Of a stretch of DNA of 28,168 nucleotides, positions 2,546 to 27,262 are shown piece by piece. The notes beneath the pieces were generated by a model that did not search any database, had not been told where the DNA came from, and saw only the letters and a list, made by a program, of their open reading frames with translations. The stretch's first letter is position 1, and each line of letters begins with the position of its first letter. Both the position numbers and the translations under genes were made by a program. Location of the stretch: positions 1 through 28,168 of the IMG/VR virus record IMGVR_UViG_3300017917_003582. One strand, 5' to 3'. The stretch comes from a virus.

Positions 2546-5083
2546 TTACTTTCTTATAATTCTTAGTATAGCATCGAGGTCTTCTTGACCCTCTTTCACA
2601 TCTTTCTGTTGTGCCTTATCTATAGACTTGTTCAATGTCTTTAGAGCATCTTTGGCTGCGTCTTTTGCTTTGACTGGTGTAGCCTTACCACCTTTAGCAT
2701 ATGGATTACCTGAACTCTCACCGCCTCTATCACTTGATGGTTGTGACTTATCCATTTCATTTAACTCCAATGATTCATTAGCACCTACTAATTTACCGAT
2801 GTTATTGTTTTTAACTTTTTCAGTTGGGCCCAATTGTCCTACACGCTTTTGGTTAGCATCAAGGTCTTCCGCCACACCTTGCTCAAAAGATTTGAATACA
2901 GCACTAGCAACATCTTTAATCTGTTTCGGTGATAGTTTTCTACCCAACTGTTCTTGGGCCTGTTGATAGATATCTTTAATGTTTGGGTTTTGGAAATTAT
3001 TTTCATAATCCCAGTAGGTAAACGATATTTTGTTTCCGTCAACATTCAATGTAAACACCTGTTGATCTAAATCACTGTCTTGATCAACAATAGAAATGCC
3101 TTCCGCCACACCTTGCTGATTTATTTTTTTGAATACTATATTTGCTACGCGGTTATAAATTGTTTCTGGAATATTATATTTGGCAAAATAACGATCTAAC
3201 GCACGATATACTGTACTGTCATGAACCATGCCACGCAATTTTTCTAGATTTTTTCCAGTTGTCAACTTGGTAGCAATATCCATTGCCTGTGCGTCTAAAT
3301 CAGCACTTTCCGCCACACCTTCTCTTAACATGCTAATTAATTCAACAGCCGACTTACCTTTTAATTCATCTTGTGACAAACTAGGATTTTTTTGTAATAA
3401 ATGCTTGATGGTATTAGCTTTCATTTTTTCATCAAATGACATATCCTGTCCACTAACTTTATCTATTTGATCATCAGATGGCAGTTTACCACCTAAACTA
3501 TGCATATCGTCTACAGATTCGTCAGCTTTTTTTTTGGTATCGTCTGTAGGAGCTTTATGTTTTAGAGGAGGGTCTTCTATGTCTCTTTTACGATTGTAGT
3601 CGGCTAGGTCTCTGAGTCTTTCCAAATATTCCTCATACCTATCTGGATCATCTAACCTATCATTCCAACCTTCTTCCATACCTTCTTCATCTAACTTATC
3701 ATATTTGGCACGAATACTTGCCATCTTTTCTTTGCTAGCACCATCACGACCTGCTTTACGCAATGCGTCCATGCCAGCTTTCCCATACTTCTTATTACCA
3801 AGATATGCCTGTAGTCCGCTTTCTTCAACTTCTTGGCCTTTTTGTCCGACCATTGCTTGGCTACTACGATGTTGTTGACTACGCTCTACATCACCTAATG
3901 TTACTGGTTTCTCACCTGCTGCTTTACGCATAAACGCAGGCTTTTTAATTTTATCACGGGCAGTTTGTCCTGCTTTTACAGCATCATCATCTTCTTCTAA
4001 ATCAAATGCTTTTAGGTTTGACTTTTCAGTATTTTGATTATGTTTTAATGTCATAGCACCAGGTGCTTCTGTTAAATTATCAGCCCATTCAGCTAATTCA
4101 TCTACCTCTTTCATTTCACTAACATTTTTTCTAAGTTTGTTTAAGATTGGAAGCACACTTTCTATCCTAGGATCCATAGTTTCCTGAACAAATAATTCAT
4201 TAATTGTATTATAATCGCCTTCATCTTCCATCAATGTTGGTGTCCAACTTTCAAAATATGTATTATAGCCCTTATGACCACGTAATTTACCTAATGTTTC
4301 TCGTAATTTAATGTAATGGTCTACCCCAGTATTGACTAATTCTTGTGCTGATTCATTAAATTGATGGTTTTTTGTAGCACGAACAAATCCTGCCATTTTA
4401 CTATATTCTTCACACAAAGACTTCATATGATTCCAACGTTCATCGTTTGGGACACCTCCTTCTGCTAAATGTCTAGCATATACCTGTGCTATTCCTGGAC
4501 GTAATGTTGGAGCAAGAATTCTTTCCCCTTGGGTATTTTCTAGAAAAATTTTAGCAACATTTCTATAACGTTGTTCTCCTTCTTGTATTTGTCTAGTATG
4601 TTGGAGTATAATTTTAACAGTAGGTACAGCATCACTATAGCTTGCTTGTTTACCCATTGAATAATATCCTTCTGCTATTTGCTCTTTCTTTTTCATATAT
4701 GTCCTTTGTGCCATATCGCTTGTTAAATTATCTTTGTTATCTAGTTTAAAGTGTTTTACTCCATTAGAATAACTCCATTGTCTTAAAAACTTTAAAAATC
4801 CAAAAAAGCTGTCGTCCATTTCTGAACTATCAGAACCAACCTTATTTTTCATTACATCTTCATCATAATATACTGTAAGATTGTTCCCATCTAAGCCTAT
4901 ATAACAATTATCATCTTCACCATTACCATTATTAAACGTAAACTTAATTACATCACCTTCTTCTGGTTCTACAGTTTTATTAATATTTTTAATGTCGCTG
5001 TCTTTAGGAACAGGATCATAACCCCTTGATAATAAAAGGTTATATATTTTTCTTCGCAGGTTTTCGTTTCGTTTAATTGGCAT
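2546..5083 (-). CDS. large modular phage protein with QGVAE linkers, function unknown
   Basis: About 845 residues. I chose the ATG at 5081-5083 (MPIKRNENLRRK); the frame can be extended nine codons to a TTG inside the terminase gene, but that start has no support. The protein is highly charged and mostly predicted helical, with no membrane segment and no recognised enzyme motif. In its C-terminal third, modules of about 70-78 residues are joined by GVAE (EGVAES, QQGVAEG, EQGVAED), encoded by an identical 13-base word three times. A stretch near the C-terminus (GQLGPTEKV...IGKLVGANES) looks, from memory, like a stereotyped module seen in many uncultured aquatic phage proteins. It follows terminase and precedes gp32. 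A packaged or head-associated protein is possible: V-A-E resembles the I/L-x-E sites cut by T4-type prohead protease. That is inference. Confidence 0.8.
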   Translation of the reverse strand: MPIKRNENLRRKIYNLLLSRGYDPVPKDSDIKNINKTVEPEEGDVIKFTFNNGNGEDDNCYIGLDGNNLTVYYDEDVMKNKVGSDSSEMDDSFFGFLKFLRQWSYSNGVKHFKLDNKDNLTSDMAQRTYMKKKEQIAEGYYSMGKQASYSDAVPTVKIILQHTRQIQEGEQRYRNVAKIFLENTQGERILAPTLRPGIAQVYARHLAEGGVPNDERWNHMKSLCEEYSKMAGFVRATKNHQFNESAQELVNTGVDHYIKLRETLGKLRGHKGYNTYFESWTPTLMEDEGDYNTINELFVQETMDPRIESVLPILNKLRKNVSEMKEVDELAEWADNLTEAPGAMTLKHNQNTEKSNLKAFDLEEDDDAVKAGQTARDKIKKPAFMRKAAGEKPVTLGDVERSQQHRSSQAMVGQKGQEVEESGLQAYLGNKKYGKAGMDALRKAGRDGASKEKMASIRAKYDKLDEEGMEEGWNDRLDDPDRYEEYLERLRDLADYNRKRDIEDPPLKHKAPTDDTKKKADESVDDMHSLGGKLPSDDQIDKVSGQDMSFDEKMKANTIKHLLQKNPSLSQDELKGKSAVELISMLREGVAESADLDAQAMDIATKLTTGKNLEKLRGMVHDSTVYRALDRYFAKYNIPETIYNRVANIVFKKINQQGVAEGISIVDQDSDLDQQVFTLNVDGNKISFTYWDYENNFQNPNIKDIYQQAQEQLGRKLSPKQIKDVASAVFKSFEQGVAEDLDANQKRVGQLGPTEKVKNNNIGKLVGANESLELNEMDKSQPSSDRGGESSGNPYAKGGKATPVKAKDAAKDALKTLNKSIDKAQQKDVKEGQEDLDAILRIIRK
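2868..2880 (-). repeat. GVAE-encoding 13-base repeat, copy 1
   Basis: The plus-strand word TCCGCCACACCTT, in frame as K/Q-GVAE; identical to copies at 3102 and 3309. It joins the module ending SFEQ to the one beginning DLDANQK. Confidence 0.75.
3102..3114 (-). repeat. GVAE-encoding 13-base repeat, copy 2
   Basis: Identical TCCGCCACACCTT, 234 bases from copy 1, again in the same reading frame, preceded by KINQQ and followed by GISIVDQ. Copies 1 and 2 also share the next bases GCT, giving QQGVAE or EQGVAE. Confidence 0.75.
3309..3321 (-). repeat. GVAE-encoding 13-base repeat, copy 3
   Basis: Identical TCCGCCACACCTT, 207 bases from copy 2, same frame, read as SMLREGVAESADLDA. Identity over 13 bases in otherwise diverged flanks suggests spread of the linker as DNA or strong constraint. 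Confidence 0.75.
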
Positions 5084-5090
5084 GATGTAT

Positions 5091-6647
5091 TTATCTTGTA
5101 AGCACAGCAAAGAAGGGTAATGGTTCTATTAATTGCTCATGGTCACGTATTTGTTCTTCTAAATTATAATGAAAATCACTTAAAGTTTGTAGCATTCTTG
5201 TAACTAGTAGTGAACTCATAACTAAATCATCAGTTTCACCTATTTTAGCTTCATAACTATCACCTTTTGCTACAAATGTTTTTAATTCACTTATTAAACT
5301 TTTACTATATAATTTCATTTTTTTAGTTTCAATAAGTGTTTTAAATTTTGCACAGGCTGCTAGTTTAACTTTATGAGTTGTATTAAAACCTTTACGTTTT
5401 TTACCTGGCTCACTTAAAAATATACCTGCTATATTACTTTCTCCGTATTCTGCGAGTGATACAAGTGCAGCTTCTCCAATGGAATTGTTTTCTATGCTAT
5501 AGTAAATGTTATTTGGCTCATTAGTGCATTCAGCAATATACTTATTAATTTGTGCTAACAATTTAACTTGATTTGGAATATCAGTTTTATTATGTTTCCA
5601 TTCTCCTACTTGTGTTGTACTATTAGCTTCATAAATTTGAATTGCAGAGGGATCACTTCCTGTACCAAGACTTGGATCCAATGCTACTATATAAATATTA
5701 CCTTTTTCAGGTTTTTTATACCAACGCACTTGACCTATACGACTTACTGGTTCTATACCTTCTAATTCAATTAATATACTAGGAGCAATAAGAGTTTCAT
5801 CTGCAATAATAAATTCGCATTCAATTTCCCTGCGAAAACGATCTAATCCTAGTTGAGCTTTCATATCATTTGCCCACGCATCATCACGTCCAGGTTGTTC
5901 GCTATAGTGCGATTTGAAAGCCTTAAAGCCATTAATTCCTAAATCAGTTTCGTTACCATATGCATCTTGACACTTATTTGCTTGTTTCCAAATTAATGCA
6001 AATTGATCTTCATCACTATTTGGAGTACTGGTAATAATGGCTTTACCTCCAGTTGACAATGTTGGTGTTATACTAGTCCAAAATTGTTCAGCTATCGTTG
6101 GTCGTACAAATGCAAATTCATCTAAGTATAATAAAGAAATACTCATACCACGACCTGTGTTTTCAGTGGTTGTTTGACTTACTATACGACTACCATTTTC
6201 AAACTCTAAACTACCTTTGTTATACGTAACAACACCTGCTTTAATATGCATTGGACATGCTTCATAAGCATATCTAATACGTTGCATAATTTCTTGTGCA
6301 CCTGCATATTTGTGTGCTGCAATCAAAACAGTGCTATCAGGCACAAACATCGCATACCAAAGTAAGTATCCAGCTGCACTTGTACTTTTACCACTTTGAC
6401 GAGGCATAAGTGCAACACTAAAACGATAATTATGATAAATGTCTATTAATCGTTTTTGATAACTATAAGGATGATATGCTAAACTACCTTTAGTAGGATG
6501 TTGTATATAAAAAAAATTATCCATAAAATGTAAATAACCATTATTTTGATCACAACATTTTATGAAATCATCGAGATCCTTTTGTGTTTTAAAAATTGTT
6601 TTTACATAAGGATCTTTTACTAGGGTAGAACTTCCTGATTTATTCAT
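5091..6647 (-). CDS. 17: terminase large subunit (gp17-like)
   Basis: The packaging motor ATPase and headful nuclease, 518 residues (T4 gp17 has 610). Walker A is MPRQSGKST at 81-89, the T4-type R-Q-x-G-K form. Walker B with the catalytic acid is LLYLDE at 172-177. The C-terminal RNase H-like nuclease shows its three acidic positions: D324 in VALDPSLGTG, E386 in YYSIENNS, and D473/D474 in ETDDLVMSSL. The ATG is at 6645-6647; no clear ribosome-binding site precedes it, so translation may depend on the upstream gene. Upstream is a beta-repeat structural protein, and downstream is the modular protein rather than the tail sheath gene that follows gp17 in T4. All key residues are present, so the protein should be functional. 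Confidence 0.95.
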   Translation of the reverse strand: MNKSGSSTLVKDPYVKTIFKTQKDLDDFIKCCDQNNGYLHFMDNFFYIQHPTKGSLAYHPYSYQKRLIDIYHNYRFSVALMPRQSGKSTSAAGYLLWYAMFVPDSTVLIAAHKYAGAQEIMQRIRYAYEACPMHIKAGVVTYNKGSLEFENGSRIVSQTTTENTGRGMSISLLYLDEFAFVRPTIAEQFWTSITPTLSTGGKAIITSTPNSDEDQFALIWKQANKCQDAYGNETDLGINGFKAFKSHYSEQPGRDDAWANDMKAQLGLDRFRREIECEFIIADETLIAPSILIELEGIEPVSRIGQVRWYKKPEKGNIYIVALDPSLGTGSDPSAIQIYEANSTTQVGEWKHNKTDIPNQVKLLAQINKYIAECTNEPNNIYYSIENNSIGEAALVSLAEYGESNIAGIFLSEPGKKRKGFNTTHKVKLAACAKFKTLIETKKMKLYSKSLISELKTFVAKGDSYEAKIGETDDLVMSSLLVTRMLQTLSDFHYNLEEQIRDHEQLIEPLPFFAVLTR

Positions 6648-6666
6648 GAGAATTATTATACAACTA

Positions 6667-8253
6667 TTAGTTTATCTCCTGCCATGCTATGCTAGCGTAT
6701 ACATCTTGGTTAGTACCAGTAGTTGCGGCAGTTAAAACATATTCATACATAACATTAGTAAAGGGCTGTCTTTGTAGTTGAACTTCAAAACCAAACTGTT
6801 CCTGACTGGGGGCTGCCGCAGTTTGGTTACTTGACATAATAAAACCTTCAGAAACAATTTCGCCGCTACTTATAGCAGTAGGTGCTAAATTATATTCAAT
6901 GGGACTTGATGCTCCGATGCCAGTCCATGTTCCACCAGTAGTAACTGCCCTACTATAGACACGGTACTTAAATGTACTTTGTGCTACGGGTGCTATGGTA
7001 AAGAATGTAGGCAATACAATACTATCAGGGCAAGTGCTTAATAATCTTATGCTTAACAATGGCTTAAAACTAGTATCGTTGGGTAATCGTACAGGAGTAC
7101 CTAAATTATGTCCTATAGCCCTAGGTGTTCCTGATAATGAATAACCGCCTTCACTAATGACAGTGGCACATATTTGACGCATTGTACTACTACCACTAGT
7201 TGCTCCTGTATTTGTAATTTCATACCGAATGGGTAAACAAGCAGTGCTCATATAGGTTGTAGTATTACCCAATTGATTAGCATGTTCAAATGTATGACAA
7301 TTAATATATACTCCATTTACAATAAAACCCACTCTAACATTTCCTACCCCCAACCATTCAATATCACAGAAAAATATTTGTGTTCTATTTGGATATAGTG
7401 TAAGGCCACTAGGATTATTGGCTCCACCTGCACCATTCATCCTATCACCGTTCCAACTACTCTGTGGTATCCTATCTTCTACAACAATTCCAGAACTGTA
7501 ACTACGGATAACCATATTGTATGTAGTTCCGTCGGTTTCAAAAAAGATTCCATTTTGACTACTAAAATATCCTACTCTTTGACGTAAATTTGCTATTGGA
7601 GTATTCATACAGAAAGTAGCATAAATCAATAAACTTTTACCTGGTTGATAAGGAAATACTTTATATGATTCAGAAATAACACTACTTCCGCTACTTGTGC
7701 TGACCGCCATTGAAAATGTGCTTTCATTTGAATTATAGGTATAAGTTCCTCCAACAGCAGTGTTTACAGCGAATTGATTATGGTTATAATAACGACTTTG
7801 TGTATCAAAAAGTGTTACAGGGTTACTTACACGTAATCTTCCAAATGCATCTAATGAATCTGTACCTAATGTTACTTCGGCTGAACCTGTTATACTAACA
7901 TTTCCTTCTACCATCCATGGATCAGTACCTTGTTGTACAGTTACATTTCCACCTGTAATATTTGCTTCAACATTTCCTTCTACGATCCAAGGGCTTGTTC
8001 CTTGTAGTACAGTTATATTTCCTGCATCAATATTGATGTTACCACTAACAGGCATGGTTGGACCACTAACATCAATATTACCTAAAGCATCAACCGTAAC
8101 ATTACTTACAATAACATTACCTGATATTGTTACGTTTCCACCAACAATACTTGAACGTACATGAACTTGCCCTGTTACTTCATCCAATTCTAGGGCTTGC
8201 GTAATATTACGCAAATACCATGGGCTTACATTTGCTGGGTTAGGTACAGCCAT
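6667..8253 (-). CDS. phage structural protein with N-terminal beta-repeats
   Basis: A 528-residue protein starting MAVPNPANVSPWYLRN. Residues about 35-125 consist of short Val/Asn/Gly repeats (SGNVIVSNVTV, GNINIDAGNITV), including a duplicated unit GN-x-TV-x-QGT-x-PW-x-VEGNV. Such repeats build beta-helices or beta-solenoids in fibres and capsid decorations. The rest is Ser/Thr/Gly-rich with beta-sandwich character and no enzyme motif. A virion surface or fibre role is likely; I recognise the style from aquatic phage structural proteins but not a named family. AAAGGAAC precedes the ATG, and a late-type promoter element lies 21 bases upstream, as expected for a virion gene. It is followed closely by terminase. 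Confidence 0.8.
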   Translation of the reverse strand: MAVPNPANVSPWYLRNITQALELDEVTGQVHVRSSIVGGNVTISGNVIVSNVTVDALGNIDVSGPTMPVSGNINIDAGNITVLQGTSPWIVEGNVEANITGGNVTVQQGTDPWMVEGNVSITGSAEVTLGTDSLDAFGRLRVSNPVTLFDTQSRYYNHNQFAVNTAVGGTYTYNSNESTFSMAVSTSSGSSVISESYKVFPYQPGKSLLIYATFCMNTPIANLRQRVGYFSSQNGIFFETDGTTYNMVIRSYSSGIVVEDRIPQSSWNGDRMNGAGGANNPSGLTLYPNRTQIFFCDIEWLGVGNVRVGFIVNGVYINCHTFEHANQLGNTTTYMSTACLPIRYEITNTGATSGSSTMRQICATVISEGGYSLSGTPRAIGHNLGTPVRLPNDTSFKPLLSIRLLSTCPDSIVLPTFFTIAPVAQSTFKYRVYSRAVTTGGTWTGIGASSPIEYNLAPTAISSGEIVSEGFIMSSNQTAAAPSQEQFGFEVQLQRQPFTNVMYEYVLTAATTGTNQDVYASIAWQEIN

Positions 8254-9046: not shown

Positions 9047-9442
9047 TTATTTTATACCTTTGAAAGATGTAACTGGGCTATGTGTGTTTACATAATCCGG
9101 TTCGTGGCTTCGATTGTTTGTTATTTGTTTTACTTGACCTGCTCCAATCATTTTAGCAGCACTATTTATAATATCCATTTCAACGTCAGTGTATGTAGCT
9201 AATAAAGGATCTCCAGCGAATGCACCTGCAGGTTCTGTCAAATGATCTGGTGCACCTGCCATTGCTATACCAAACCTCCATTGAGTATATGGACTGCCAC
9301 CTTGTTTGGTTTGACTAATGTCGGGCATACTTATTGCCCCTTTTATGGCACCACGCTGTGATTTGGTTAGCTTGTTTGGATTAGCAGGTACGTCTTCTGC
9401 TGCTCCATATTTTGCCTCAAATATAAATTCACTAGCTCTCAT
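9047..9442 (-). CDS. small protein with capsid-targeting-like N-terminus (paralogue 1)
   Basis: 131 residues from the ATG at 9440-9442; an extension to a GTG at 9451 is possible but is less likely. It begins MRASEFIFEAKYG and ends SPVTSFKGIK. The start resembles the T4 capsid-targeting peptide MKTYQEFIAE, which directs internal proteins into the prohead and is cut after the Glu (I-x-E). The centre, YTQWRFGIAMA, aligns with YELYRFGVALA of the gene at 10704. It overlaps the Ntn-hydrolase stop by eleven bases. No enzyme motif is seen. A role as a packaged, injected protein is inferred from the N-terminal motif only. Confidence 0.75.
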   Translation of the reverse strand: MRASEFIFEAKYGAAEDVPANPNKLTKSQRGAIKGAISMPDISQTKQGGSPYTQWRFGIAMAGAPDHLTEPAGAFAGDPLLATYTDVEMDIINSAAKMIGAGQVKQITNNRSHEPDYVNTHSPVTSFKGIK

Positions 9443-10316
9443 TATGATCACTCATTTGCATTTTTTCAAAAGGTTTTGGTTTGTTTGTTTTTTGCCATAA
9501 CTCTCTATTATTTAGTATTTCAACCCATACATTAGTATTAGGCTTATTAAGTTTCCAAAAATCAAATTGAAGATTACTACTTACTGGTCTACAATATAAT
9601 GTTTTTTCTTTTGGTACACAAAGTTGTTGTGAGGTTGTACGAAATTGATCTTTACCTGTACTAAATCTCATGATGTTTAATTGAGGATGTTTTATAAAAA
9701 TTTTACACATTCCATCAACCAAATCTTCAGGACTTTGTGCTAATTGTACAACTTTTTCTGCTTGTTTAAGTCTTGACTCACTACTTAATCTATCCGCAAC
9801 CTCTTGTTTATTTTTGCTATTACGTTGAAAACTAGCCCACGGTAAATATATTCCATGATTAGTTCTAGCAACGGTATTATTTTTATTGATTTTTTTAATA
9901 AGAAACTTATATGGCTTTGTACCATCTTGATCACTTGCTTCAATAAGATAACAATTATCTTCATTAAAAACAATAGTACAACCTACAAGTTTTCTATGAA
10001 TCAAATGTTTTACAGCATCTAATGGATCCTTATGTAGTAATGCTTCTTCTATATACTTTCCATCTGGACTAGATTTTATTTTTCCGTTTTCAACATCAGC
10101 TTCATCATTTCCTATATCTAGGCTAGTATTTAAAATACTAACACCATGATTGTTTAGCCCTTCTTTATACCCAGTTATTTGATCGTGCATCATCATACGT
10201 TGTATACCATCAACTTCATCTTCAATAAAGTCAAGAGTAGGTATATATTTTCTATCACGGTTTTTAGCGCCTGCCCAACCTATACTTGGAAAATATTTAG
10301 CAAGTATAATACACAT
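9432..10316 (-). CDS. Ntn-hydrolase-type protein (C45/choloylglycine hydrolase-like)
   Basis: A 294-residue protein starting MCIILAKYFPSIGWAGAKNRDR. Met followed by Cys, then an N-R-D motif, is the signature of N-terminal nucleophile hydrolases: Met removal exposes Cys2 as the catalytic nucleophile, and the Arg of NRD supports it. Further family features are NHGVSILNTSLD and TVARTNHGIYLPWA, where the T-N-H motif fits acyltransferase/penicillin-acylase-like members. The likely chemistry is amide-bond hydrolysis or acyl transfer; the substrate cannot be read from sequence. The ATG overlaps the previous stop as TAATG and the 3' end overlaps the next gene, placing this enzyme inside a row of internal-protein-like genes. 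Related proteins appear, from memory, in uncultured aquatic phages. Confidence 0.8.
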   Translation of the reverse strand: MCIILAKYFPSIGWAGAKNRDRKYIPTLDFIEDEVDGIQRMMMHDQITGYKEGLNNHGVSILNTSLDIGNDEADVENGKIKSSPDGKYIEEALLHKDPLDAVKHLIHRKLVGCTIVFNEDNCYLIEASDQDGTKPYKFLIKKINKNNTVARTNHGIYLPWASFQRNSKNKQEVADRLSSESRLKQAEKVVQLAQSPEDLVDGMCKIFIKHPQLNIMRFSTGKDQFRTTSQQLCVPKEKTLYCRPVSSNLQFDFWKLNKPNTNVWVEILNNRELWQKTNKPKPFEKMQMSDHNES

Positions 10317-10702
10317 TACTTTTTAAAACCTTTAAATCCTTTAATTGGACTATCCTTATGAACTTCGTCCATTTCCCATTTACCAGTTGTGAAAAATTCT
10401 TGTGGTTTCATACCTAATTTTTTCATAACTTTTTTAAGTTTTTCTCTGTCATGTTCTGTGTATGCCGAATAAACTGGTAAATTACCAAAAAAGCTTATAG
10501 CATCTGTTTTTTCTAGTTCATCGGGATCCATACCCACTAAACTAGCAATGCGATAAAAATCATAATAACGACCAATGTATAGATCACCTCTACCTGCTGG
10601 ACTTACTAATCCAGGATGTGCTGTTTTAAATTCACCATTAGGTTCTGCTCTGGACTTTCCTCTTAGGCCATTTGCCTCATTGATAAATTCTTTAGCCCTC
10701 AT
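10316..10702 (-). CDS. small protein with capsid-targeting-like N-terminus (paralogue 2)
   Basis: 128 residues, from MRAKEFINEANGLRG to SPIKGFKGFKK. The N-terminal motif matches its neighbours (MRA-x-EFI-x-E) and the C-terminal motif is the clearest copy of SPIK-x-FKGF. The centre, YYDFYRIASLVGMDPDE, aligns loosely with the YRFG segments of the other two. It is basic at the C-terminus. It lies directly after paralogue 3 with one base between, and its stop overlaps the Ntn-hydrolase start. Function unknown; a packaged internal protein is a reasonable hypothesis. Confidence 0.75.
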   Translation of the reverse strand: MRAKEFINEANGLRGKSRAEPNGEFKTAHPGLVSPAGRGDLYIGRYYDFYRIASLVGMDPDELEKTDAISFFGNLPVYSAYTEHDREKLKKVMKKLGMKPQEFFTTGKWEMDEVHKDSPIKGFKGFKK

Positions 10703-10703
10703 T

Positions 10704-11099
10704 CTAAAATCCTTTAAAAGGTTTAATAGGTGATTGTTTTAGTGTATCGTCAAACTCTTGACTGCCTGGAGTACTAACTGCTACTTTACCACTTTTATTA
10801 ACTTTTTTTAGTGCTTGATCTATAACACTACCTATATTTGGATCAAAACTACTTACAATTTGATTTTCACCCCAACTTGTTTCTGCTTTAAAATTTGGCT
10901 TAAATTTATCAATATTTTTTACATCACCCATATTACCACGGACATCAGCTAATGCAACACCAAAACGATATAGTTCGTAAAAATCTTGATTTTTTAATTC
11001 AGGTAATATATAGGTATAGGGTAATGATTTGGCAGCGACTTCAAGTCCATCATGCACATCACTTAATTTTTGTTCAGTGATAAATTCACTAGCTCTCAT
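10704..11099 (-). CDS. small protein with capsid-targeting-like N-terminus (paralogue 3)
   Basis: 131 residues, from MRASEFITEQKLSDV to SPIKPFKGF. The first nine residues are a near-exact relative of the T4 internal-protein signal, with I-T-E giving a predicted prohead-protease cut after Glu9. The central YELYRFGVALADVRG is shared with paralogue 1. Its ATG overlaps the stop of the fibre-like gene (ATGA), so it is translationally coupled to a virion gene and probably under the same late promoter at 11654. No enzyme motif was found. Confidence 0.75.
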   Translation of the reverse strand: MRASEFITEQKLSDVHDGLEVAAKSLPYTYILPELKNQDFYELYRFGVALADVRGNMGDVKNIDKFKPNFKAETSWGENQIVSSFDPNIGSVIDQALKKVNKSGKVAVSTPGSQEFDDTLKQSPIKPFKGF

Positions 11100-11632
11100 T
11101 CTGTCGTTATAAAATTGTTATCTTCTGTTGCTAAAAAGTCCCCTGAAGTACCTTCTAGACCCAATGGTGTACCCAAAGTAAATGTACCATCTGTAATTTG
11201 AGCAGATATAAAGTGATTAAGTGTAGCATTTACTAATGGACTTACCTTAAGTTGTACATTACCTGTTATTGAGTCATAGGCAACATCATAATTTGTAACA
11301 GGAGTATTAATAAAAATTGTACTGTGTCCTACCCACTGTACTAATGTTCCATTATTTCTTATGCTAGCATTAATCGTAATATTTTGACTATTTTGATTTG
11401 CTGGATTAGCTGAATTTATTTGAAAAGTTGCTTGTGTAAAATTATTAGCTGATACTTGAAAAATTACTTGATTAGGAGTATTATTAAAGGTTGTTGATTG
11501 ATAAGTAAAAAATCCACTGCTGTATAGTTGTGAGAAGTTATTATTTACTTTTGTAAAAGCAACACGTAGTGGATCACCTGATCCATCATTTGGAGCAGCA
11601 CCAATATTAATTACTTCAAAACTCGTGGCCAT
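11096..11632 (-). CDS. fibre/appendage-like structural protein
   Basis: 178 residues. The N-terminus carries the widespread phage signature INIGAAPNDGSGDPLR followed by AFTKVNNNFSQLY, which in many phages begins tail-fibre, baseplate-wedge or neck-attached appendage proteins. The rest is Asn/Thr/Ser-rich beta-type sequence. Which appendage cannot be decided. An AGGAAA site precedes the ATG, and a CTAAATA late-type element lies 21 bases upstream, consistent with late expression together with the three small genes downstream. Confidence 0.8.
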   Translation of the reverse strand: MATSFEVINIGAAPNDGSGDPLRVAFTKVNNNFSQLYSSGFFTYQSTTFNNTPNQVIFQVSANNFTQATFQINSANPANQNSQNITINASIRNNGTLVQWVGHSTIFINTPVTNYDVAYDSITGNVQLKVSPLVNATLNHFISAQITDGTFTLGTPLGLEGTSGDFLATEDNNFITTE

Positions 11633-12764: not shown

Positions 12765-13808
12765 TTAATTAAAAAATTTAATTATTTTGTCTGTTATATA
12801 TTCGACTTCACTATCTGTAAGTTCAGGGTATATAGGTAAACTTAAAACACCTTTACTTAACATAAAACTTGTACTCATAAAATCAGGTTTGTTTTTTATT
12901 CTGTTAGTTATAGGCAACTCACTTAAAACTTTTTCATAATGAATTTTTACTTCAATTTCTTTACTCTCAAGGAATTTCCTAAGATCGTCACGTTTTTCAT
13001 AATAAATTACAAACTTTTGATCTGCATGGACTGGGTAGTCACTTGAAAGACACCTTATAGGCAGATTTTTGAATCTATCAATATAGAAGTATCTAATTTG
13101 TTTTCTTCTCCATTGCCAATCATCAATGTATTTCGTTTTTACTAATAGTTGAGCACAATCAACTTCGCTCATCCTACTATTAGAACCTATTTGAGTATGA
13201 TATAACCTTTTTCCGTTGTTTTTATAATCAACTATAAATTGATGTAAGTCATAATCATTCGTAACTAATGCACCACCATTACCTGGACCACTCAAATTTT
13301 TAGTAGGATCAAAACTTATTGCCATTCCTATACCAAAGTCTTGAGTATTAATTAACCAATGTTGTGCTCCGTCTATAATATCATTGCTTGTAGGTTTATG
13401 TATTGGAGCTCCATATAAACCTACTTGGCATACATAATTTTCATTTAGTTTATTTTTATTTATAATACCATTTTTATCTGTATCACATAGTATAACGTTA
13501 AACCCAGCCAACAAAAAAGCATTTAAAGTTGCAGGATATGTAAGATTGGGTATTTCTACGAAAGGATCAAAGATTTCATTTTTGCTACATTCTAATTTTA
13601 AGTATTGAGCAACAACTTCAAGTGCTTGTGTACAACTATGTAAAGTAGTTGCATATGTGGCTCCTGTTTTTAATGACAACCATAGTTCAAATTTTTTAGT
13701 AAATTCACCATCAAGGCATATACCTTCACGTAAAGCCCTGTCAGTAGCTTCAAGTAGTTCTTGTTTTAAATGGCTATATTGTTTTTTAAGACCAAAGAAA
13801 GAAATCAT
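12765..13808 (-). CDS. DegT/DnrJ/EryC1/StrS-type PLP aminotransferase
   Basis: 347 residues, close to the usual size (350-400) of nucleotide-sugar aminotransferases. N-terminal MISFFGLKKQY and LDGEFTKKFE match the family start. The PLP site is visible: DGAQHW with D146 and Q149, and the Schiff-base lysine K170 in SFDPTKNLSGPGNGGALV. These enzymes transaminate keto-sugars bound to nucleotides for aminosugar synthesis in O-antigens or antibiotics. The ATG overlaps the radical SAM stop (ATGA). A remnant of a second DegT start lies at 15054-15125. Substrate unknown; a role in surface-glycan modification fits the epimerase and PP-loop protein upstream. Confidence 0.9.
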   Translation of the reverse strand: MISFFGLKKQYSHLKQELLEATDRALREGICLDGEFTKKFELWLSLKTGATYATTLHSCTQALEVVAQYLKLECSKNEIFDPFVEIPNLTYPATLNAFLLAGFNVILCDTDKNGIINKNKLNENYVCQVGLYGAPIHKPTSNDIIDGAQHWLINTQDFGIGMAISFDPTKNLSGPGNGGALVTNDYDLHQFIVDYKNNGKRLYHTQIGSNSRMSEVDCAQLLVKTKYIDDWQWRRKQIRYFYIDRFKNLPIRCLSSDYPVHADQKFVIYYEKRDDLRKFLESKEIEVKIHYEKVLSELPITNRIKNKPDFMSTSFMLSKGVLSLPIYPELTDSEVEYITDKIIKFFN

Positions 13809-15016
13809 AAACTATTTAATAAAGTATACAATTCTAAATTTGAATCTTTTAAAAAATGTTGCCTGTTATTATCTAATATATTATTAAACTTTAGATAATT
13901 TTTTAATTGGTTTTCATTATATTCATTGGTTAGGCATATTTTTTTAAGACTATAAAGTTTATGTTTAAATTGTGTATTCTGAAATTTGCATTTTGATGAA
14001 AGCCAGTTTTCAATTCTTGTCCAACATTTAATTTTATAATATGTAGGTAAATATTTAATATTTAAATATTCAGGAAGTGTCAACATGATAGGATCGATAT
14101 TAACTATTGGTTTTTTAAGTTCATAATTTATTTTTTCAATGTAATCAAAAAGATCAATAATCTTATTCAGGTTACCTATTTGTATAACAGGGGTAACAAT
14201 TAATTTAAAGGTATCATTTTTAATAACCTGTTTAATATTACCATCTATTTTTTCCCAATTACTAGGATATCTTAAGTATTCCTGTATTTCTTTATATCCA
14301 TCTATACTTCCAAAGAAAATAACATTTGAAAAATTATTAAGTAATGAAAAAAATTCTGTATTTAAATTGGTTAAATTAGTATTAAATTTTACAACAACCT
14401 GTTTGCTTTTGCCTATATCAATAAGATATTTAAGAAATTTTTTATTATTTTCATTTAGGGTTGGTTCACCTCCTGTCAAATACAATAATTGAATATTTTC
14501 TACTTGTTCTAGTAGATTATTATTAAATGTATCAGTAAGATACCAATCATTTAAAGTTTGCGAGTTAGCAACATACCAAAATTTTTTTAGGTCGGCATTA
14601 TTAATATTATTTATTTCTTTAGCAATTTGACTGCTAGCAGTAGGATTGCAACTTCTACAACTTAGATTACAAAGATTTCCAAATCTTAAATCAAAATATT
14701 TTATTTTTATTTTTTCAAGTACAGTGGTTTTATTTTCGACAATAAAATTTTGATAAGATAATCTATGACTTATATTAGAGGTTTTTTCTTGTTCGTAACA
14801 ACGTGAGCAACCTTCAACTATCATACCTTGTAACATCTTTTCTCTAATAGTAACGAAGGCTTTGCTGTTATAAATTTCATCTAATTTATCATATCCTAAA
14901 TTAAATTTTGTACCATCTTCTTTAGTTATATAATCGGTGGATACGCAACAAGGTTTAACAGAACCGTCTGGATCAACACTGATATTAATCCACGGTAATG
15001 TGCAAAAAGTTTTCAT
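13805..15016 (-). CDS. radical SAM protein with twitch/SPASM-like N-terminus
   Basis: 403 residues. An N-terminal motif FCTLPWINI...GSVKPCC (C5, C23, C24) and CSRC (C70, C73) resemble auxiliary iron-sulphur cluster ligands of the twitch-type family. The core radical SAM motif C-x3-C-x2-C is CNLSCRSC at C116, C120, C123, followed by TGGEPTLN at about 181-188, the SAM-binding GGE motif. These proteins cleave SAM to a radical; the substrate here is unknown. Similar twitch radical SAM proteins occur, from memory, in marine phages near sugar genes. No good ribosome-binding site precedes the ATG. The coding region is noticeably AT-rich compared with gp32 or MoxR, which could reflect recent acquisition. 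Confidence 0.88.
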   Translation of the reverse strand: MKTFCTLPWINISVDPDGSVKPCCVSTDYITKEDGTKFNLGYDKLDEIYNSKAFVTIREKMLQGMIVEGCSRCYEQEKTSNISHRLSYQNFIVENKTTVLEKIKIKYFDLRFGNLCNLSCRSCNPTASSQIAKEINNINNADLKKFWYVANSQTLNDWYLTDTFNNNLLEQVENIQLLYLTGGEPTLNENNKKFLKYLIDIGKSKQVVVKFNTNLTNLNTEFFSLLNNFSNVIFFGSIDGYKEIQEYLRYPSNWEKIDGNIKQVIKNDTFKLIVTPVIQIGNLNKIIDLFDYIEKINYELKKPIVNIDPIMLTLPEYLNIKYLPTYYKIKCWTRIENWLSSKCKFQNTQFKHKLYSLKKICLTNEYNENQLKNYLKFNNILDNNRQHFLKDSNLELYTLLNSL

Positions 15017-15053
15017 ATTTTATTAAACTCAATATTAATTTAATTTAAACCAT

Positions 15054-15125
15054 TCATAATATAACAGTAATCCTTTTTGAATATTGATTACGATATTGCC
15101 TGTCTTAACCAAAAAAGGGTATCAT
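15054..15125 (-). pseudogene. remnant of a DegT aminotransferase 5' end
   Basis: Starting one base after the stop of the gene at 15127, the frame reads MIPFFG, stop, DRQYRNQYSKR. DegT enzymes of this type commonly begin MIPFFGLDRQY, and the intact copy at 13808 begins MISFFGLKKQY. A single change of TTA to TAA accounts for the stop; homology fades after about 14 codons. The position, immediately behind the PP-loop gene, is where a coupled DegT gene would start. The best reading is a scar left when the original DegT gene was replaced by the radical SAM plus DegT pair. Chance resemblance cannot be excluded over so short a stretch. Confidence 0.55.
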
Positions 15126-15126
15126 A

Positions 15127-16254
15127 TTAGGTAATATATTTGTTTATATTTTCACGTAATGTAATTTTACTAAAATTCTTTTTATAATTATCAAAAACGT
15201 TGCCTTCATTTTTATAATCTGATAATAGTTGTAGGAAGTCCGGTCTATTATATTTAATAATATTTTTTTGTATTATTACATTGAGTGCATTACTTAGTAT
15301 ATCGTCTAATGATAGTTGATTTACAATATCAGTAATTCTTATATCATAAAAAGGACTAAAATGATAATTGTTATCTATATGCCACATCTGGTAATCATAA
15401 TAAACACTTTCATTGCAATGGTCTAACAAATCTTGTTCATTTGTTAGTGTAGGTGCATTATTGATTTTTAATATAGGTCTTTGTAAGAAATGATAGAGGT
15501 AATCTTTACTAGTAGTAATTTCATGTAATTTTTTGCCTACATAGTTAGCAATAGCATGTCCTTGTGTAACTTCTCTAAGTTGTATTCTCTCTGAATAAAA
15601 TCCTGTGATATACCAGTTTTCTTTTGTATAACAACTGGTCAAGTTATAACTCCAAAACTTCTTACTACATAAGTCCATTAAGTCAGATTGATATTCTTGG
15701 TTTCTACCTAAACTCTTAAAAGAACTAGGAACGGGTAGATGGAAATCATAATCGTGCCCTAAACTGTCTACTAAACTCCATACCGTAAGAGTATCTATAC
15801 CTCCAGTGAATAAAACGTTTAGTTTATCTATTTTATTATATTTAAAAAAGTTTACAACATTTTCTCTTAGAACTTCGTTAATTTGTATTGAGGCTTCTTC
15901 TAATGTTATATTTGATTTTCTTTTTATTGATGCTGTGGAACAATTAACTAAATCTAACTTTGGTAAAGGCATATTGGTTTTAATACCTTTTTGGTTTGTA
16001 TATAAAGGAAAACCACGCAATAAAGGATGATATATATCTCCCCTTTCACTAACTATTGCATATTTACCATTTGCATTATAACCATCGATTATTTCTTTAA
16101 CATGATTAGATAAAATGCAATCGGTACTATATCCTTTATACCAATAATTTACATCATTGATTTTTTCACATTTCCAACCTTTATCCAAAAATAAATTTTC
16201 TGTAACTTTATCAACAGACTTAATAGGACATTCTTGACCAATATAAAAAAACAT
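15127..16254 (-). CDS. asparagine-synthetase-like PP-loop enzyme
   Basis: 375 residues from the ATG at 16252-16254, which overlaps the epimerase stop (TAATG) and has GGAGG eleven bases upstream; a TTG extension is less likely. The PP-loop ATP pyrophosphatase motif is LFTGGIDTLT (about residues 148-157), equal to S-G-G-x-D-S in asparagine synthetase. SPFYDIRITDIV near the C-terminus matches the F-P-F-x-D-x-R element of AsnB. The N-terminal 100 residues are shortened and lack the Cys2 nucleophile of glutamine amidotransferases, so it may use ammonia or another amine, as in amide-forming enzymes of sugar or peptide modification. Product unknown; neighbours suggest a glycan pathway. Confidence 0.8.
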   Translation of the reverse strand: MFFYIGQECPIKSVDKVTENLFLDKGWKCEKINDVNYWYKGYSTDCILSNHVKEIIDGYNANGKYAIVSERGDIYHPLLRGFPLYTNQKGIKTNMPLPKLDLVNCSTASIKRKSNITLEEASIQINEVLRENVVNFFKYNKIDKLNVLFTGGIDTLTVWSLVDSLGHDYDFHLPVPSSFKSLGRNQEYQSDLMDLCSKKFWSYNLTSCYTKENWYITGFYSERIQLREVTQGHAIANYVGKKLHEITTSKDYLYHFLQRPILKINNAPTLTNEQDLLDHCNESVYYDYQMWHIDNNYHFSPFYDIRITDIVNQLSLDDILSNALNVIIQKNIIKYNRPDFLQLLSDYKNEGNVFDNYKKNFSKITLRENINKYIT

Positions 16255-17222
16255 TAAGTTTTTAACCTCCAAAACTTACTTTTACATAGCCAATCGTAAT
16301 ACTTTACAAACCCTTCTTCTATATCTACCTTAGGATCATAATTAAAGTCACGACAGGCGCTATCTATATTTAGTGAGCCTCTGCTAGGAAAATTTAAATC
16401 ACGTTCTCTAATTTCTATATCACCTTTTCCTACTATATCAACAATCAATTCAGCAGCATGGTATAAGGTGTGACTAACACCCCTTGTAATATTATAAGTT
16501 TTGTTAAAGGTATAATCAGATAATGATGCACTTACTATTCCATTTGCAACATCATCAACATAAGTAAAATCTAATTCTTCATGAATACCATTAACATAAA
16601 GAATTTGATCATGCATAGCTTGCAAAAAAAATTTACTTAAAACTCTATCAGTTACGTCCAAAGGACCATAAACAGCACTTGGTCTTATAATTGTATAGTT
16701 AAAATTACCTTTTTTAGCGTAATCTTTTACCAACCATTCTCCTGCAAGTTTAAGTATCCCATATTGACCTTCGGGTTGACATACATAATCTTCATTTGTA
16801 TTGTTAATAAAATTTCCATAAACCATACTACTGCTTACATAAACAAACTTTTTTACATTGTTTGTTTTACTTAATTCTAATATATTAAGCAAACCTTGAC
16901 TCATCGTTCTTGATCCCCAAGTCGGGTGTTTATTTACAATTTTTTGTCTAGGAAAACTTGCCATATGTATAACTATATCAAATTTTTGACTTGTAAATAA
17001 CCACTCCATATTTTTCTGTTCACAAATATCAAATTTGTAACAAAAAGGAGTGGTTATTATCTTTTTACGTTCTTTTATCAAATAATCAACCTCATGTTTA
17101 GGAATGATTCCATAGTTTGTTTGCGAATCAACTAAGATTACTGTATGGCATAATTTTTCTAACTTACTTACAATATGGTGACCTATAAATCCTAAACCAC
17201 CTGTGACTAAAATTTTAGTCAT
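16254..17222 (-). CDS. NAD-dependent sugar epimerase/dehydratase
   Basis: 322 residues, extended short-chain dehydrogenase. The NAD-binding motif is GGLGFIG at 8-14. The catalytic set is SSSMVYG (Ser around 131) and Y154-x3-K158 in YGILKLAG. Length and motifs match GalE/RmlB-like enzymes acting on nucleotide-activated sugars. The second half (TIIRPSAVYGP, DFTYVDDVANGI) carries the usual substrate-domain landmarks. It overlaps both neighbours, so it is translated together with the small gene upstream and the PP-loop enzyme downstream. The exact reaction (epimerisation or dehydration) cannot be decided. Confidence 0.92.
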   Translation of the reverse strand: MTKILVTGGLGFIGHHIVSKLEKLCHTVILVDSQTNYGIIPKHEVDYLIKERKKIITTPFCYKFDICEQKNMEWLFTSQKFDIVIHMASFPRQKIVNKHPTWGSRTMSQGLLNILELSKTNNVKKFVYVSSSMVYGNFINNTNEDYVCQPEGQYGILKLAGEWLVKDYAKKGNFNYTIIRPSAVYGPLDVTDRVLSKFFLQAMHDQILYVNGIHEELDFTYVDDVANGIVSASLSDYTFNKTYNITRGVSHTLYHAAELIVDIVGKGDIEIRERDLNFPSRGSLNIDSACRDFNYDPKVDIEEGFVKYYDWLCKSKFWRLKT

Positions 17223-25359: not shown

Positions 25360-25887
25360 TTACATTGCAATTTTATTAATACTAGCAATTACACTACTAA
25401 TCTTACCTATTGCCTGTAATTGTTGTACAGTTAAACCTTCTTTTTTTAATGTGTCATAATGATTTTTAACACAAAAATGACATTTACCAACAATACTTGC
25501 TGCTAACGCATACATCTCAAATTGTTTCTTTGTTACTCCACCATGATTTGCATATGCATTCATACGTAATCCAGGTGGCAATCCTTTTAGATCAGGATCG
25601 TTACACATCTCAACAAATGGATAGAATACATTATTAATACCCATTAATGCTGCTGCTGTTTTTGCTGCTTCACATTCTTTTGTCCCTGTTAAAACGCCCT
25701 TCATTTGAATATCAAATGCTAGGTCTCCATTATTTGCAGCAATTGCTGCTGCCAATGCACAAGCATGTGCATCGACCTCATCTAAACCACTACGATTCAT
25801 AACACTGTCAAGATTTAATCTGTTATCTTTGCAGTGATCAGGAATACTATTTTTAATCTGATCAACCCAATTAATTTGTTGTTGCAT
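25360..25887 (-). CDS. ahpD: AhpD-family alkylhydroperoxidase / thiol reductant
   Basis: 175 residues (M. tuberculosis AhpD has 177). The catalytic set is E124, C136, C139, H143 in GKCHFCVKNH, with the same spacing (12, 3, 4) as E118, C130, C133, H137 of mycobacterial AhpD. This protein reduces AhpC-type peroxiredoxin disulphides and has weak peroxidase activity. It is preceded by AAGGA and overlaps the TerC-family gene by 17 bases; the matching AhpC-type protein starts the same operon. Presence of both partners argues for a working peroxide-detoxification pair in the infected cell. AhpD in turn needs a host dihydrolipoamide or thioredoxin-like donor. Confidence 0.9.
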   Translation of the reverse strand: MQQQINWVDQIKNSIPDHCKDNRLNLDSVMNRSGLDEVDAHACALAAAIAANNGDLAFDIQMKGVLTGTKECEAAKTAAALMGINNVFYPFVEMCNDPDLKGLPPGLRMNAYANHGGVTKKQFEMYALAASIVGKCHFCVKNHYDTLKKEGLTVQQLQAIGKISSVIASINKIAM

Positions 25888-26542
25888 TCTTTTTTATCCT
25901 TGTCCTATAATATTGTTTACATGTTAATACAAAAGCCATAATAAATGGCAACCCTTTTTCAGACCAGTCGTGCAACGGATCAATATATGTATCAACAAAA
26001 GGTTCGCTAGTAATCATTTTAAATGCCACAGCATATAATACATAAGCACCGATGAAAACACTGTCTGGATACTTTTCTAATAACTTAGCTACCAGTGTGC
26101 TACCAAATAATATGATAGGTACACTAACTAATAATCCAAATATAATTAACCACCAATTGCCACCTGCTGCTCCAGCAATGGCAAGTGCATTGTCAAGCCC
26201 CATTACAGCATCAGCCATAACAATTGTACCCATTGCTCCCCAAAACGTTTCACTTGCTTTTACATCGGTATGGTCCTCATTACTACTTGTTAGTCTCCAT
26301 GCTATATAAATCAATAGTAAACCACCAACTAATCTAAGTCCAGGAATCATTAACAAATAAGTTAGTGCTGCCACACAAATAAATCTTACAGCAACAGCAC
26401 CAAACGTACCGTATATTAATGCTTTCCTACGCATCTCAGGATTTAAATTTCTACTAGCCATTGCAATTACTAATGCGTTCTCACCTCCAAGAACAACATC
26501 AATTAAAACAATTGCTAGTAATGCCCAAATAAATTCAATCAT
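25871..26542 (-). CDS. TerC/YjbE-family integral membrane protein
   Basis: 223 residues with about six to seven hydrophobic segments. The two family repeats are visible: IDVVLGGENALVIAMA (14-29) and MADAVMGLDNALAIAGAA (109-126), each with acidic residues in a membrane helix that likely bind a metal ion. TerC-family proteins are linked to manganese export, metallation of secreted enzymes and tellurite resistance. Placed between AhpC- and AhpD-type genes, a role in manganese balance during oxidative stress is plausible, by inference. The start overlaps the stop of the 44-residue membrane peptide, and the C-terminus is basic. Confidence 0.88.
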   Translation of the reverse strand: MIEFIWALLAIVLIDVVLGGENALVIAMASRNLNPEMRRKALIYGTFGAVAVRFICVAALTYLLMIPGLRLVGGLLLIYIAWRLTSSNEDHTDVKASETFWGAMGTIVMADAVMGLDNALAIAGAAGGNWWLIIFGLLVSVPIILFGSTLVAKLLEKYPDSVFIGAYVLYAVAFKMITSEPFVDTYIDPLHDWSEKGLPFIMAFVLTCKQYYRTRIKKNATTN

Positions 26543-26669
26543 CTTTCTTCTTATCTTTATTTGCTTTATCGTATAGGTAATTTCCTAACATAACTGCCAC
26601 TACGATTGAAATGAAAAATATTAAAAATTTCATTTCATAAACATCCCACAATGTTTCGTATTCAAACAT
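26535..26669 (-). CDS. 44-residue single-pass membrane peptide
   Basis: A small gene between peroxiredoxin and TerC. MFEYETLWDVYEMKF is followed by one membrane helix (FLIFFISIVVAVMLGNYLY) and a charged tail, DKANKDKKKDD. Its ATG overlaps the peroxiredoxin stop (TAATG) with GGAGGAG upstream, and its stop overlaps the TerC start by eight bases. The layout, one helix and a basic tail, fits a small membrane regulator or partner of the TerC protein; no family is known to me. Confidence 0.75.
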   Translation of the reverse strand: MFEYETLWDVYEMKFLIFFISIVVAVMLGNYLYDKANKDKKKDD

Positions 26670-27262
26670 TATAGTGTGTCTCCTCCAATTGGACGACTAC
26701 ATGGGCATAATTCACCAGTCTGTAATGCGTCTAAAATACGTAGTGTTTCATCTGGGTTACGACCAACATCTAAATTGTTTACTGTAACATGTTGAATAAC
26801 ATTATTTGGATCAATAATAAATGTTGCTCTTAATGCTGCTCCAGCTGGTTTATAAAAAATACCAAGTTGTTGAGCAAGGCCCTCATGTTGTACAGTATCA
26901 TATGTTGTTCTCTGGCTATTCCAACGCTCATCTGCTTCACGTGCCGTATCAGCAAACATCCAACTATTTGTTTTCTTCAAATCTTCATGTGCGTTACGCC
27001 ATGCTAACTTACAGAATTCATTATCTGTGCTACCAATCAATAATACAGCATCACGGTCTGCGAAGTCACGGTTTAATTTATCATATGCTACAATTTCTGT
27101 GGGGCATACGAAAGTAAAGTCTTTGGGATAGTATACAATAACTTTCCACTTCCCTTCAAAACTTTTTTCTGTAATTGTTTCAAAAGCATTGTCTGGGGTT
27201 AATGCTCCTGGTTTAACGCCTGTCATTGCGAAGGGTTCTAAAGTATGTCCAACTGTTTTCAT
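26669..27262 (-). CDS. ahpC: AhpC-type 2-Cys peroxiredoxin
   Basis: 197 residues. Peroxidatic Cys53 lies in PKDFTFVCPTEI, and C186/C188 in GELCPC are the resolving cysteines; the C-x-C form is that of mycobacterial AhpC (C174, C176), whose reductant is AhpD. The stretch VGRNPDETLRILDALQ also matches that subgroup. It reduces hydrogen peroxide and organic peroxides. An insertion of roughly 20 residues (AREADERWNSQRTTYDTVQH) lies between the two cysteine regions compared with M. tuberculosis AhpC as I recall it. AAGGAG precedes the ATG. It heads the operon that ends with AhpD. Confidence 0.93.
   Translation of the reverse strand: MKTVGHTLEPFAMTGVKPGALTPDNAFETITEKSFEGKWKVIVYYPKDFTFVCPTEIVAYDKLNRDFADRDAVLLIGSTDNEFCKLAWRNAHEDLKKTNSWMFADTAREADERWNSQRTTYDTVQHEGLAQQLGIFYKPAGAALRATFIIDPNNVIQHVTVNNLDVGRNPDETLRILDALQTGELCPCSRPIGGDTL

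What the first reader, a model, noticed from the sequence alone, without database searches (positions are those of the whole stretch)
9047..11099. Three tandem paralogues with T4-like capsid-targeting N-termini and a shared C-terminal tag
Proteins at 9047, 10316 and 10704 start MRASEFIFE, MRAKEFINE and MRASEFITE and end SPVTSFKGIK, SPIKGFKGFKK and SPIKPFKGF. T4 internal proteins start MKTYQEFIAE, a signal for packaging into the prohead that is cut after I-x-E. The resemblance predicts that these proteins are packaged, trimmed after the Glu and injected with DNA. The C-terminal SPIK-x-FKGF tag, shared despite different cores, has no known role to me. A central YRFG-like segment suggests common ancestry.
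Basis: partly seen in the sequence, partly recalled or inferred. Interest (0 to 1): 0.75.

Follow-up and report, generated by a model that had tools for sequence, protein, structure and literature searches.

The report
Phage proteins tagged for head packaging
Three neighbouring proteins of an uncultured giant phage start with a short address label that large phages of this kind put on many unrelated proteins, very probably to load them into the virus head, where the label is cut off, so the label gives a list of proteins these phages may deliver into bacteria.

Summary
Three minus-strand paralogues (9047-9442, 10316-10702, 10704-11099) begin MRAxEFIxE and end in SPxxxFKG-type tails. They sit in a tightly coupled operon with a 294-aa protein predicted to have an Ntn-hydrolase fold. 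The window is a fragment of a T4-superfamily jumbo phage; 159 viral contigs encode the most conserved paralogue. The cores are homologous, so the tail is a family C-terminus and not a tag shared by different cores. The MRAxEFIxE start, however, is transferable. One DNA pattern for it finds at least 120 viral contigs (scan truncated), against 7 for a permuted control. It heads about 29 core groups, including kinase-like, acetyltransferase and wall-hydrolase proteins. Position 9 is Glu in 307 of 323 MRAxEF proteins, and half of the 16 exceptions carry a shifted [ILV]xE site (4% expected). All 11 examined contigs of at least 190 kb with the motif or the family encode a gp21-like prohead protease. 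In cultured phages MA9V-1 and MA9V-2, an EFLNE or AFINE stretch lies directly before the predicted catalytic Cys of the Ntn-hydrolase homologue. Packaging and trimming after Glu are therefore well supported by inference. Injection and the role of the mature proteins remain inferred. Nothing was shown by experiment.

The parts
10704..11099 (-). Paralogue A, 131 aa, MRASEFITE...SPIKPFKGF; its ATG overlaps the stop of the upstream gp9/10-like gene by 4 bases
11073..11099 (-). Predicted capsid-targeting sequence of A (MRASEFITE, cut predicted after the last Glu)
   Evidence: inference
10707..10733 (-). Conserved C-terminal tail of A (SPIKPFKGF)
10316..10702 (-). Paralogue B, 128 aa, MRAKEFINE...SPIKGFKGFKK
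10676..10702 (-). Predicted capsid-targeting sequence of B (MRAKEFINE)
   Evidence: inference
10319..10351 (-). Conserved C-terminal tail of B (SPIKGFKGFKK)
9432..10316 (-). 294-aa protein between B and C with predicted Ntn-hydrolase fold (choloylglycine hydrolase / acyl-CoA:isopenicillin N acyltransferase type); Met-Cys start, Cys2 invariant in 44 aligned homologues; start overlaps B's stop, end overlaps C's start
9047..9442 (-). Paralogue C, 131 aa, MRASEFIFE...SPVTSFKGIK; the most conserved copy (159 viral contigs)
9416..9442 (-). Predicted capsid-targeting sequence of C (MRASEFIFE)
   Evidence: inference
9050..9079 (-). Conserved C-terminal tail of C (SPVTSFKGIK)
11096..11632 (-). Gene directly upstream in the same operon, T4 gp9/10-like N-terminal domain (baseplate/fibre connector)
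6667..8253 (-). Context: virion structural protein (phrog_1645, head and packaging)
5091..6647 (-). Context: T4-type terminase large subunit, nearest to jumbo phages PA5oct, Phosso and Atu_ph07
2546..5110 (-). Context: homologue of PA5oct gp278 (virion structural protein detected by MS); contains three GVAE[G/S/D] sites

Best explanation
The three proteins are internal head proteins of a T4-superfamily jumbo phage. The first nine residues act as a transferable capsid-targeting sequence in two parts: MRAxEF docks the protein on the prohead core, and [I/L/V]-x-Glu is the cut site of the phage's gp21-like prohead protease. During head maturation the nonapeptide is removed after the Glu. The remaining protein, a small helical core with a basic-aromatic C-terminal tail (SPVxxFKGY), stays in the DNA-filled head and most likely enters the host with the DNA. 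Shown here: the sequence pattern, its spread over unrelated proteins, the constraint on the cut site, and co-occurrence with the protease. Inferred: packaging, cutting, ejection. The role of the mature proteins is a guess: strongly conserved, DNA-associated internal proteins or early effectors. The confidence given is for packaging plus cutting; for injection I would say about 0.55.
For: 143 proteins fall into 29 core groups, 78 of them in the window's family. Non-family carriers include GNAT acetyltransferases, GH19 and LysM-SLT wall hydrolases, Hydrolase_2 and a kinase-like protein (phrog_15752). Protein-level constraint: in 323 proteins picked only by MRAxEF, position 9 is Glu in 307, position 7 is I/V/L in 311, positions 4 and 8 are free, and synonymous codons vary. 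Displaced sites: of the 16 without Glu9, 8 have [ILV]xE with the Glu at 10-16, against 4.4% in body windows (p about 1e-7) and 8 of 307 in Glu9 proteins. Protease: a homologue of the PA5oct head maturation protease is in 11 of 11 contigs of at least 190 kb carrying the motif or family; three of these genomes were read in full and also match T4 gp21 and carry gp20-gp22-gp23 homologues beside it; one was classified as phrog_207 head maturation protease. The major head protein has [FY]LxE-like sites at the gp23 maturation position. Known parallel: T4 CTS with targeting residues 4 and 7, processing residues 8 and 10, and L/I-x-E cutting (PMC9026906). Independent cut-site clue: phages MA9V-1/2 have NEFLNE-C and NAFINE-C exactly before the Cys that aligns with Cys2 of the Ntn hydrolase, and MA9V-1 has an annotated prohead core protease.
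Against: No virion proteomics and no cultured relative of the three proteins. The window fragment holds no head module, so protease co-occurrence is shown only in relatives. PA5oct, which has the protease and much MS data, shows no MRAxEF start in the 140 kb examined. A looser motif [FY][ILV]xE is only about two-fold over expectation at N-termini at best, so only the strict form carries weight. The mature part matches no known internal protein or PDB fold. The displaced-site window was chosen after seeing the data and the 16 proteins are not fully independent.
Confidence: 0.78

Rival explanations
1. The nonapeptide targets the proteins to the head and is cut, but the mature proteins stay as fixed minor parts of the capsid or core and are never injected.
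For: Paralogue C is unusually conserved for an effector (53-85% identity over the 80 loci listed of 159) and the cassette sits among virion structural genes. One to four copies are kept clustered in every large relative.
Against: The same start is on catalytic proteins (acetyltransferases, kinase-like, wall hydrolases) that make more sense if delivered. T4 precedent: the packaged IPs and Alt act in the host (own knowledge; PMC9026906 for packaging).
Confidence: 0.3
2. The nonapeptide is an uncut docking helix for the scaffold or another head protein; the Glu is part of the binding face.
For: R2, A3, E5 and F6 are as conserved as E9. The AF2 model draws residues 3-13 as a helix, at low confidence.
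Against: Position 8 is free and position 7 takes I/V/L, the pattern of an (I/L)xE cut site. When Glu9 is lost, an [ILV]xE site often appears a few residues on. In MA9V-1/2 the same type of site sits where an Ntn hydrolase needs to be opened.
Confidence: 0.1
3. The conservation is at DNA or RNA level (translation start or late promoter element), the peptide being a by-product.
For: The motif is strictly at starts and the genes are tightly coupled.
Against: Third codon positions vary freely: Ala GCA/GCC/GCT/GCG, Glu GAA/GAG 204/119, Phe TTT/TTC 234/89, Ile three codons about equally.
Confidence: 0.02
4. The three proteins share start and tail only by local gene duplication, with no signal function.
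For: They are true paralogues.
Against: The start occurs on 28 further core groups without the family tail, while the rest of the family diverged to about 30% identity.
Confidence: 0.03

Closest known systems
T4 internal proteins IPII/IPIII and their capsid-targeting sequence (MKTYQEFIAE), cut by gp21
   Same: Short N-terminal start followed by EFIxE, the L/I-x-E site, several small proteins sharing it, gp21/gp23-type head module in relatives
   Different: MRAxEF consensus (9 not 10 residues), no similarity of the mature parts by Pfam or fold search, far higher conservation of one paralogue, conserved C-terminal tail, coupled Ntn-hydrolase gene, and use on many more protein types
phiKZ / SPN3US inner-body and ejection proteins processed by the prohead protease
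   Same: Jumbo-phage head proteins trimmed after a Glu of a short x-x-E motif (PMC9026906)
   Different: Those phages have diverged proteases, and phiKZ uses S/A-x-E sites; no common targeting nonapeptide is described in the text read here
Polyvalent proteins (Iyer et al. 2017, PMC5512222; abstract only)
   Same: Several carriers of the start are multidomain enzymes; one has a weak Kinase-PolyVal match
   Different: The window's three proteins are single small helical domains; polyvalent membership was not tested
Choloylglycine-type Ntn hydrolases (bile-salt hydrolase, penicillin V acylase, isopenicillin N acyltransferase)
   Same: Predicted fold of the 294-aa neighbour and its N-terminal Cys
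   Different: 16% identity or less; phage-borne, translationally coupled to head-targeted proteins; substrate unknown

Membership tests
T4-type capsid-targeting sequence (CTS) proteins | N-terminal propeptide of about 7-19 residues ending in an (I/L)xE site | tested here: met
   229 of 233 family members; I/V/L at 7, Glu at 9; V included, slightly wider than T4
T4-type capsid-targeting sequence (CTS) proteins | Targeting part works on unrelated cargo | tested here: inconclusive
   Same start on 29 core groups; sufficiency for packaging needs a fusion experiment
T4-type capsid-targeting sequence (CTS) proteins | gp21-type prohead protease in the same genome | tested here: met
   11 of 11 contigs of at least 190 kb; the 28-kb window itself holds no head module, and the Pfam scan of it had no working positive control
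T4-type capsid-targeting sequence (CTS) proteins | Found in the virion in trimmed form | not testable with these tools
   No proteome of any relative of the family
T4 internal protein families (IPI, IPII, IPIII) | Sequence or fold similarity of the mature protein | tested here: not met
   No Pfam match at E 1; no PDB fold match; not filed as a member
Ntn hydrolase (294-aa neighbour) | Ntn-hydrolase fold | tested here: met
   AF2 pLDDT 86; Foldseek to 2x1e E 5e-8, bile-salt hydrolases, penicillin V acylase; a predicted model, not a solved structure
Ntn hydrolase (294-aa neighbour) | N-terminal nucleophile (Cys) | tested here: met
   Cys2 invariant in 44 homologues; in MA9V-1/2 the aligned Cys follows EFLNE or AFINE
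Ntn hydrolase (294-aa neighbour) | Amide hydrolysis | not testable with these tools
   Needs an enzyme assay

The most novel reading that the evidence does not exclude
Uncultured T4-superfamily jumbo phages use a common, removable nonapeptide address (MRAxEF-[ILV]xE) to load a varied set of enzymes into the head for delivery on infection. Some cargo (wall hydrolases) carries a twin-arginine export signal directly behind the cut site, a double address: first the virion, then out of the host cytoplasm. In the Chryseobacterium phages the prohead protease also activates an Ntn hydrolase by exposing its catalytic Cys.
Probability: 0.45. Interest if true: 0.82.

Novelty: new variant of a known kind. 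Interest (0 to 1): 0.66.

Why it matters
If right, a nine-residue sequence predicts from raw metagenomes which giant-phage proteins travel inside the virion. That turns the open question 'what do jumbo phages inject?' into a list of testable proteins, gives a natural record of prohead-protease site specificity, and offers a new targeting peptide for loading proteins into T4-type heads.

Tried and rejected
1) 'Different cores with one C-terminal tag': rejected; cores form one homology component and the tail is not on other proteins. 2) DNA-level motif: rejected by codon variation. 3) PF03420 scan for the protease gave nothing, but its controls also rang nowhere, so it was discarded and replaced by the PA5oct protease as query. 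4) Profile A2 could not drive search for related loci; subgroup A3 was used instead. 5) Bacterial genomes: no relative of paralogue C; the start pattern has 33 hits in 257 Gb, many internal or with short ORFs. 6) Broad motif [FY][ILV]xE at N-termini: weak excess only. 7) Function of the mature fold: no PDB match; one uncharacterised uncultured-phage protein in BFVD, E 5.5e-5. 8) Tblastn of the family against 50,697 phage records: only Gordonia-phage matches at E 0.008 or worse over 40% of paralogue B, judged chance. 9) GVAE as a further cut site: three copies in one window protein, but near background in the jumbo genomes, so left open. 10) I suspected ADP-ribosyltransferase in the LYHATSIP proteins (L285:1654, L249:7946); no Pfam match, and no PHROG match for the one tested, so not claimed.

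Full report
WHAT THE WINDOW IS. The window is a 28,168-base IMG/VR virus record. Its terminase is closest to those of the jumbo phages PA5oct, Phosso, Atu_ph07, GAP32 and CBB. It also carries a gp32-like protein, a phrog_1645 virion structural protein and a gp9/10-like protein. It is a fragment and holds no capsid module.

THE OBSERVATION. The three ORFs, their starts and their tails are as described. They are read in the order gp9/10-like gene, A (10704-11099), B (10316-10702), a 294-aa gene (9432-10316), C (9047-9442), with starts and stops overlapping or one base apart, so translation is probably coupled. Nine closely related contigs keep the family, 159 viral contigs encode paralogue C, and large relatives carry one to four clustered copies. 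No relative of C was found in one genome each of 84,980 bacterial and archaeal species, and tblastn searches with four family members in the annotated phage collection gave nothing convincing.

FAMILY ANATOMY. 233 distinct members were collected. Columns R2, A3, E5, F6 and E9 are 98-99% fixed, column 7 is I/V/L, columns 4 and 8 are free. The core carries Y-x3-R-x3-A-x-A; the C-terminus carries S-x-E and SPVxxFKGY. With both termini cut away all members still join in one BLASTP component, so the 'different cores' are diverged homologues. The AF2 model of C is a small helical core with low-confidence ends (pLDDT about 60 and 54) and no PDB match.

THE START IS A TRANSFERABLE SIGNAL. The 143 proteins of at least 50 aa form 29 groups once the first ten residues are removed. 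Outside the window's family there are GNAT acetyltransferases, a GH19 chitinase-type and a LysM-SLT wall hydrolase, a ParB-like protein, a Hydrolase_2 wall hydrolase and a kinase-like protein. Within single genomes that also carry gp21- and gp23-like genes, non-homologous carriers coexist with the window's family (G011 with MRASDFITE; G012 with two MRAxEFITE proteins).

THE CUT SITE. Among 323 proteins selected only for MRAxEF, 307 have Glu at 9 and 311 have I/V/L at 7; synonymous codons vary. The 16 exceptions are telling: 8 have a new [ILV]xE ending at residues 10-16, against 4.4% in body windows and 2.6% in Glu9 proteins (binomial p about 1e-7; window chosen after inspection, sequences partly related). 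This separates a docking part (MRAxEF) from a cutting part ([ILV]xE), as mutagenesis did for T4 IPIII: targeting mainly at residues 4 and 7, processing at 8 and 10, gp21 motif L/I-x-E (PMC9026906).

THE PROTEASE. The PA5oct head maturation protease finds one homologue (51-58% identity) in all 11 contigs of at least 190 kb that carry the motif or family; about 5% of annotated phage records have one (2,475 of 50,697), though size and lineage confound this comparison. T4 gp21 itself matches these proteins at E 1e-13 to 1e-18, and gp20, gp22 and gp23 homologues lie beside them. The major head proteins carry KYLKE-N or similar where T4 gp23 is cut (position by alignment, cutting not shown). Smaller motif contigs without the protease are fragments.

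AN INDEPENDENT CLUE. The 294-aa neighbour is predicted to have the fold of choloylglycine-type Ntn hydrolases, with Cys2 invariant. Such enzymes need the Cys at the N-terminus (established knowledge). Its homologues in the cultured phages MA9V-1 and MA9V-2 begin MTSANNNEFLNE-C and MTSADNNAFINE-C, so an F-[IL]-N-E site ends exactly before that Cys, and MA9V-1 is annotated with a prohead core protease. Cutting after Glu would create the active enzyme. Other MA9V-1 proteins start MKTFTCFINE-A, MKNFFSFINE-A and MRDFFINE-A.

WHAT IS AND IS NOT SHOWN. Shown by computation: the family, its operon, spread of the start over unrelated proteins, constraint on the Glu site and co-occurrence with a gp21-like protease. 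Inferred: packaging, cutting, ejection. Unknown: what the mature proteins do. My guess is abundant DNA-associated internal proteins delivered with the genome; the basic-aromatic tail could bind DNA or the portal, but nothing tests this.

NOVELTY. The principle (CTS plus gp21) is known from T4, and its use for varied cargo has been proposed there (PMC9026906). I found no description of this consensus, this family, its coupling to an Ntn hydrolase, or the breadth of cargo in the library searched; subscription papers were not covered.

Noticed in passing
L188:2992-3612, L285:413-1297, and a third protein in L283 (- strand): Three proteins with an MRAxEFIAE or MRASEIIAE start have a twin-arginine (RRGFL-type) signal directly behind the predicted cut site; the first is a GH19 chitinase-type and the second a LysM-SLT wall hydrolase. 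Suggests a double address: head, then host export.
   Followed up: partly
L342:14965-15789 (MA9V-1) and L346:3965-4789 (MA9V-2): Ntn-hydrolase homologues whose predicted catalytic Cys is directly preceded by EFLNE or AFINE, as if activated by the prohead protease.
   Followed up: partly
L234:11838 (-), L241:7597 (-), L253:95 (+): Tiny proteins such as MRAQEFIKENASVGATSSGSVATVAMPVGGMIARN resemble the major head protein around and beyond its maturation site (KYLKENASSGSTGSGNIATLNRVILPVIRR) (by eye).
   Followed up: no
window 2546-5110: The virion-protein homologue has three GVAE[G/S/D] sites (0.1 expected in the window), also seen in G004 and L194 proteins, possibly further protease sites; near background in other jumbo genomes.
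   Followed up: partly
L018:2636-3265, L132:16770-17507, L148:7735-8343, L160:3508-4134: A protein in four jumbo genomes starts MKSLKxYLxES or similar, close to the T4 targeting sequence; the L148 copy weakly matches a PHROG virion structural protein.
   Followed up: no
window 25360-27262: TerC-family membrane protein (25871-26542), carboxymuconolactone-decarboxylase/AhpD-like protein (25360-25887) and, by eye, a peroxiredoxin (26669-27262) lie together in a phage contig, a possible oxidative-stress cluster.
   Followed up: no
window 12765-17222: Aminotransferase (phrog_3139), a radical-SAM-looking protein (13805-15016, by eye), and an epimerase-like protein (16254-17222, by eye): a possible sugar or peptide modification cluster near the cassette.
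   Followed up: no
L345:8502-12545 (MA9V-1): The prohead core protease domain is part of a 1,347-residue protein, unusually large for gp21.
   Followed up: no
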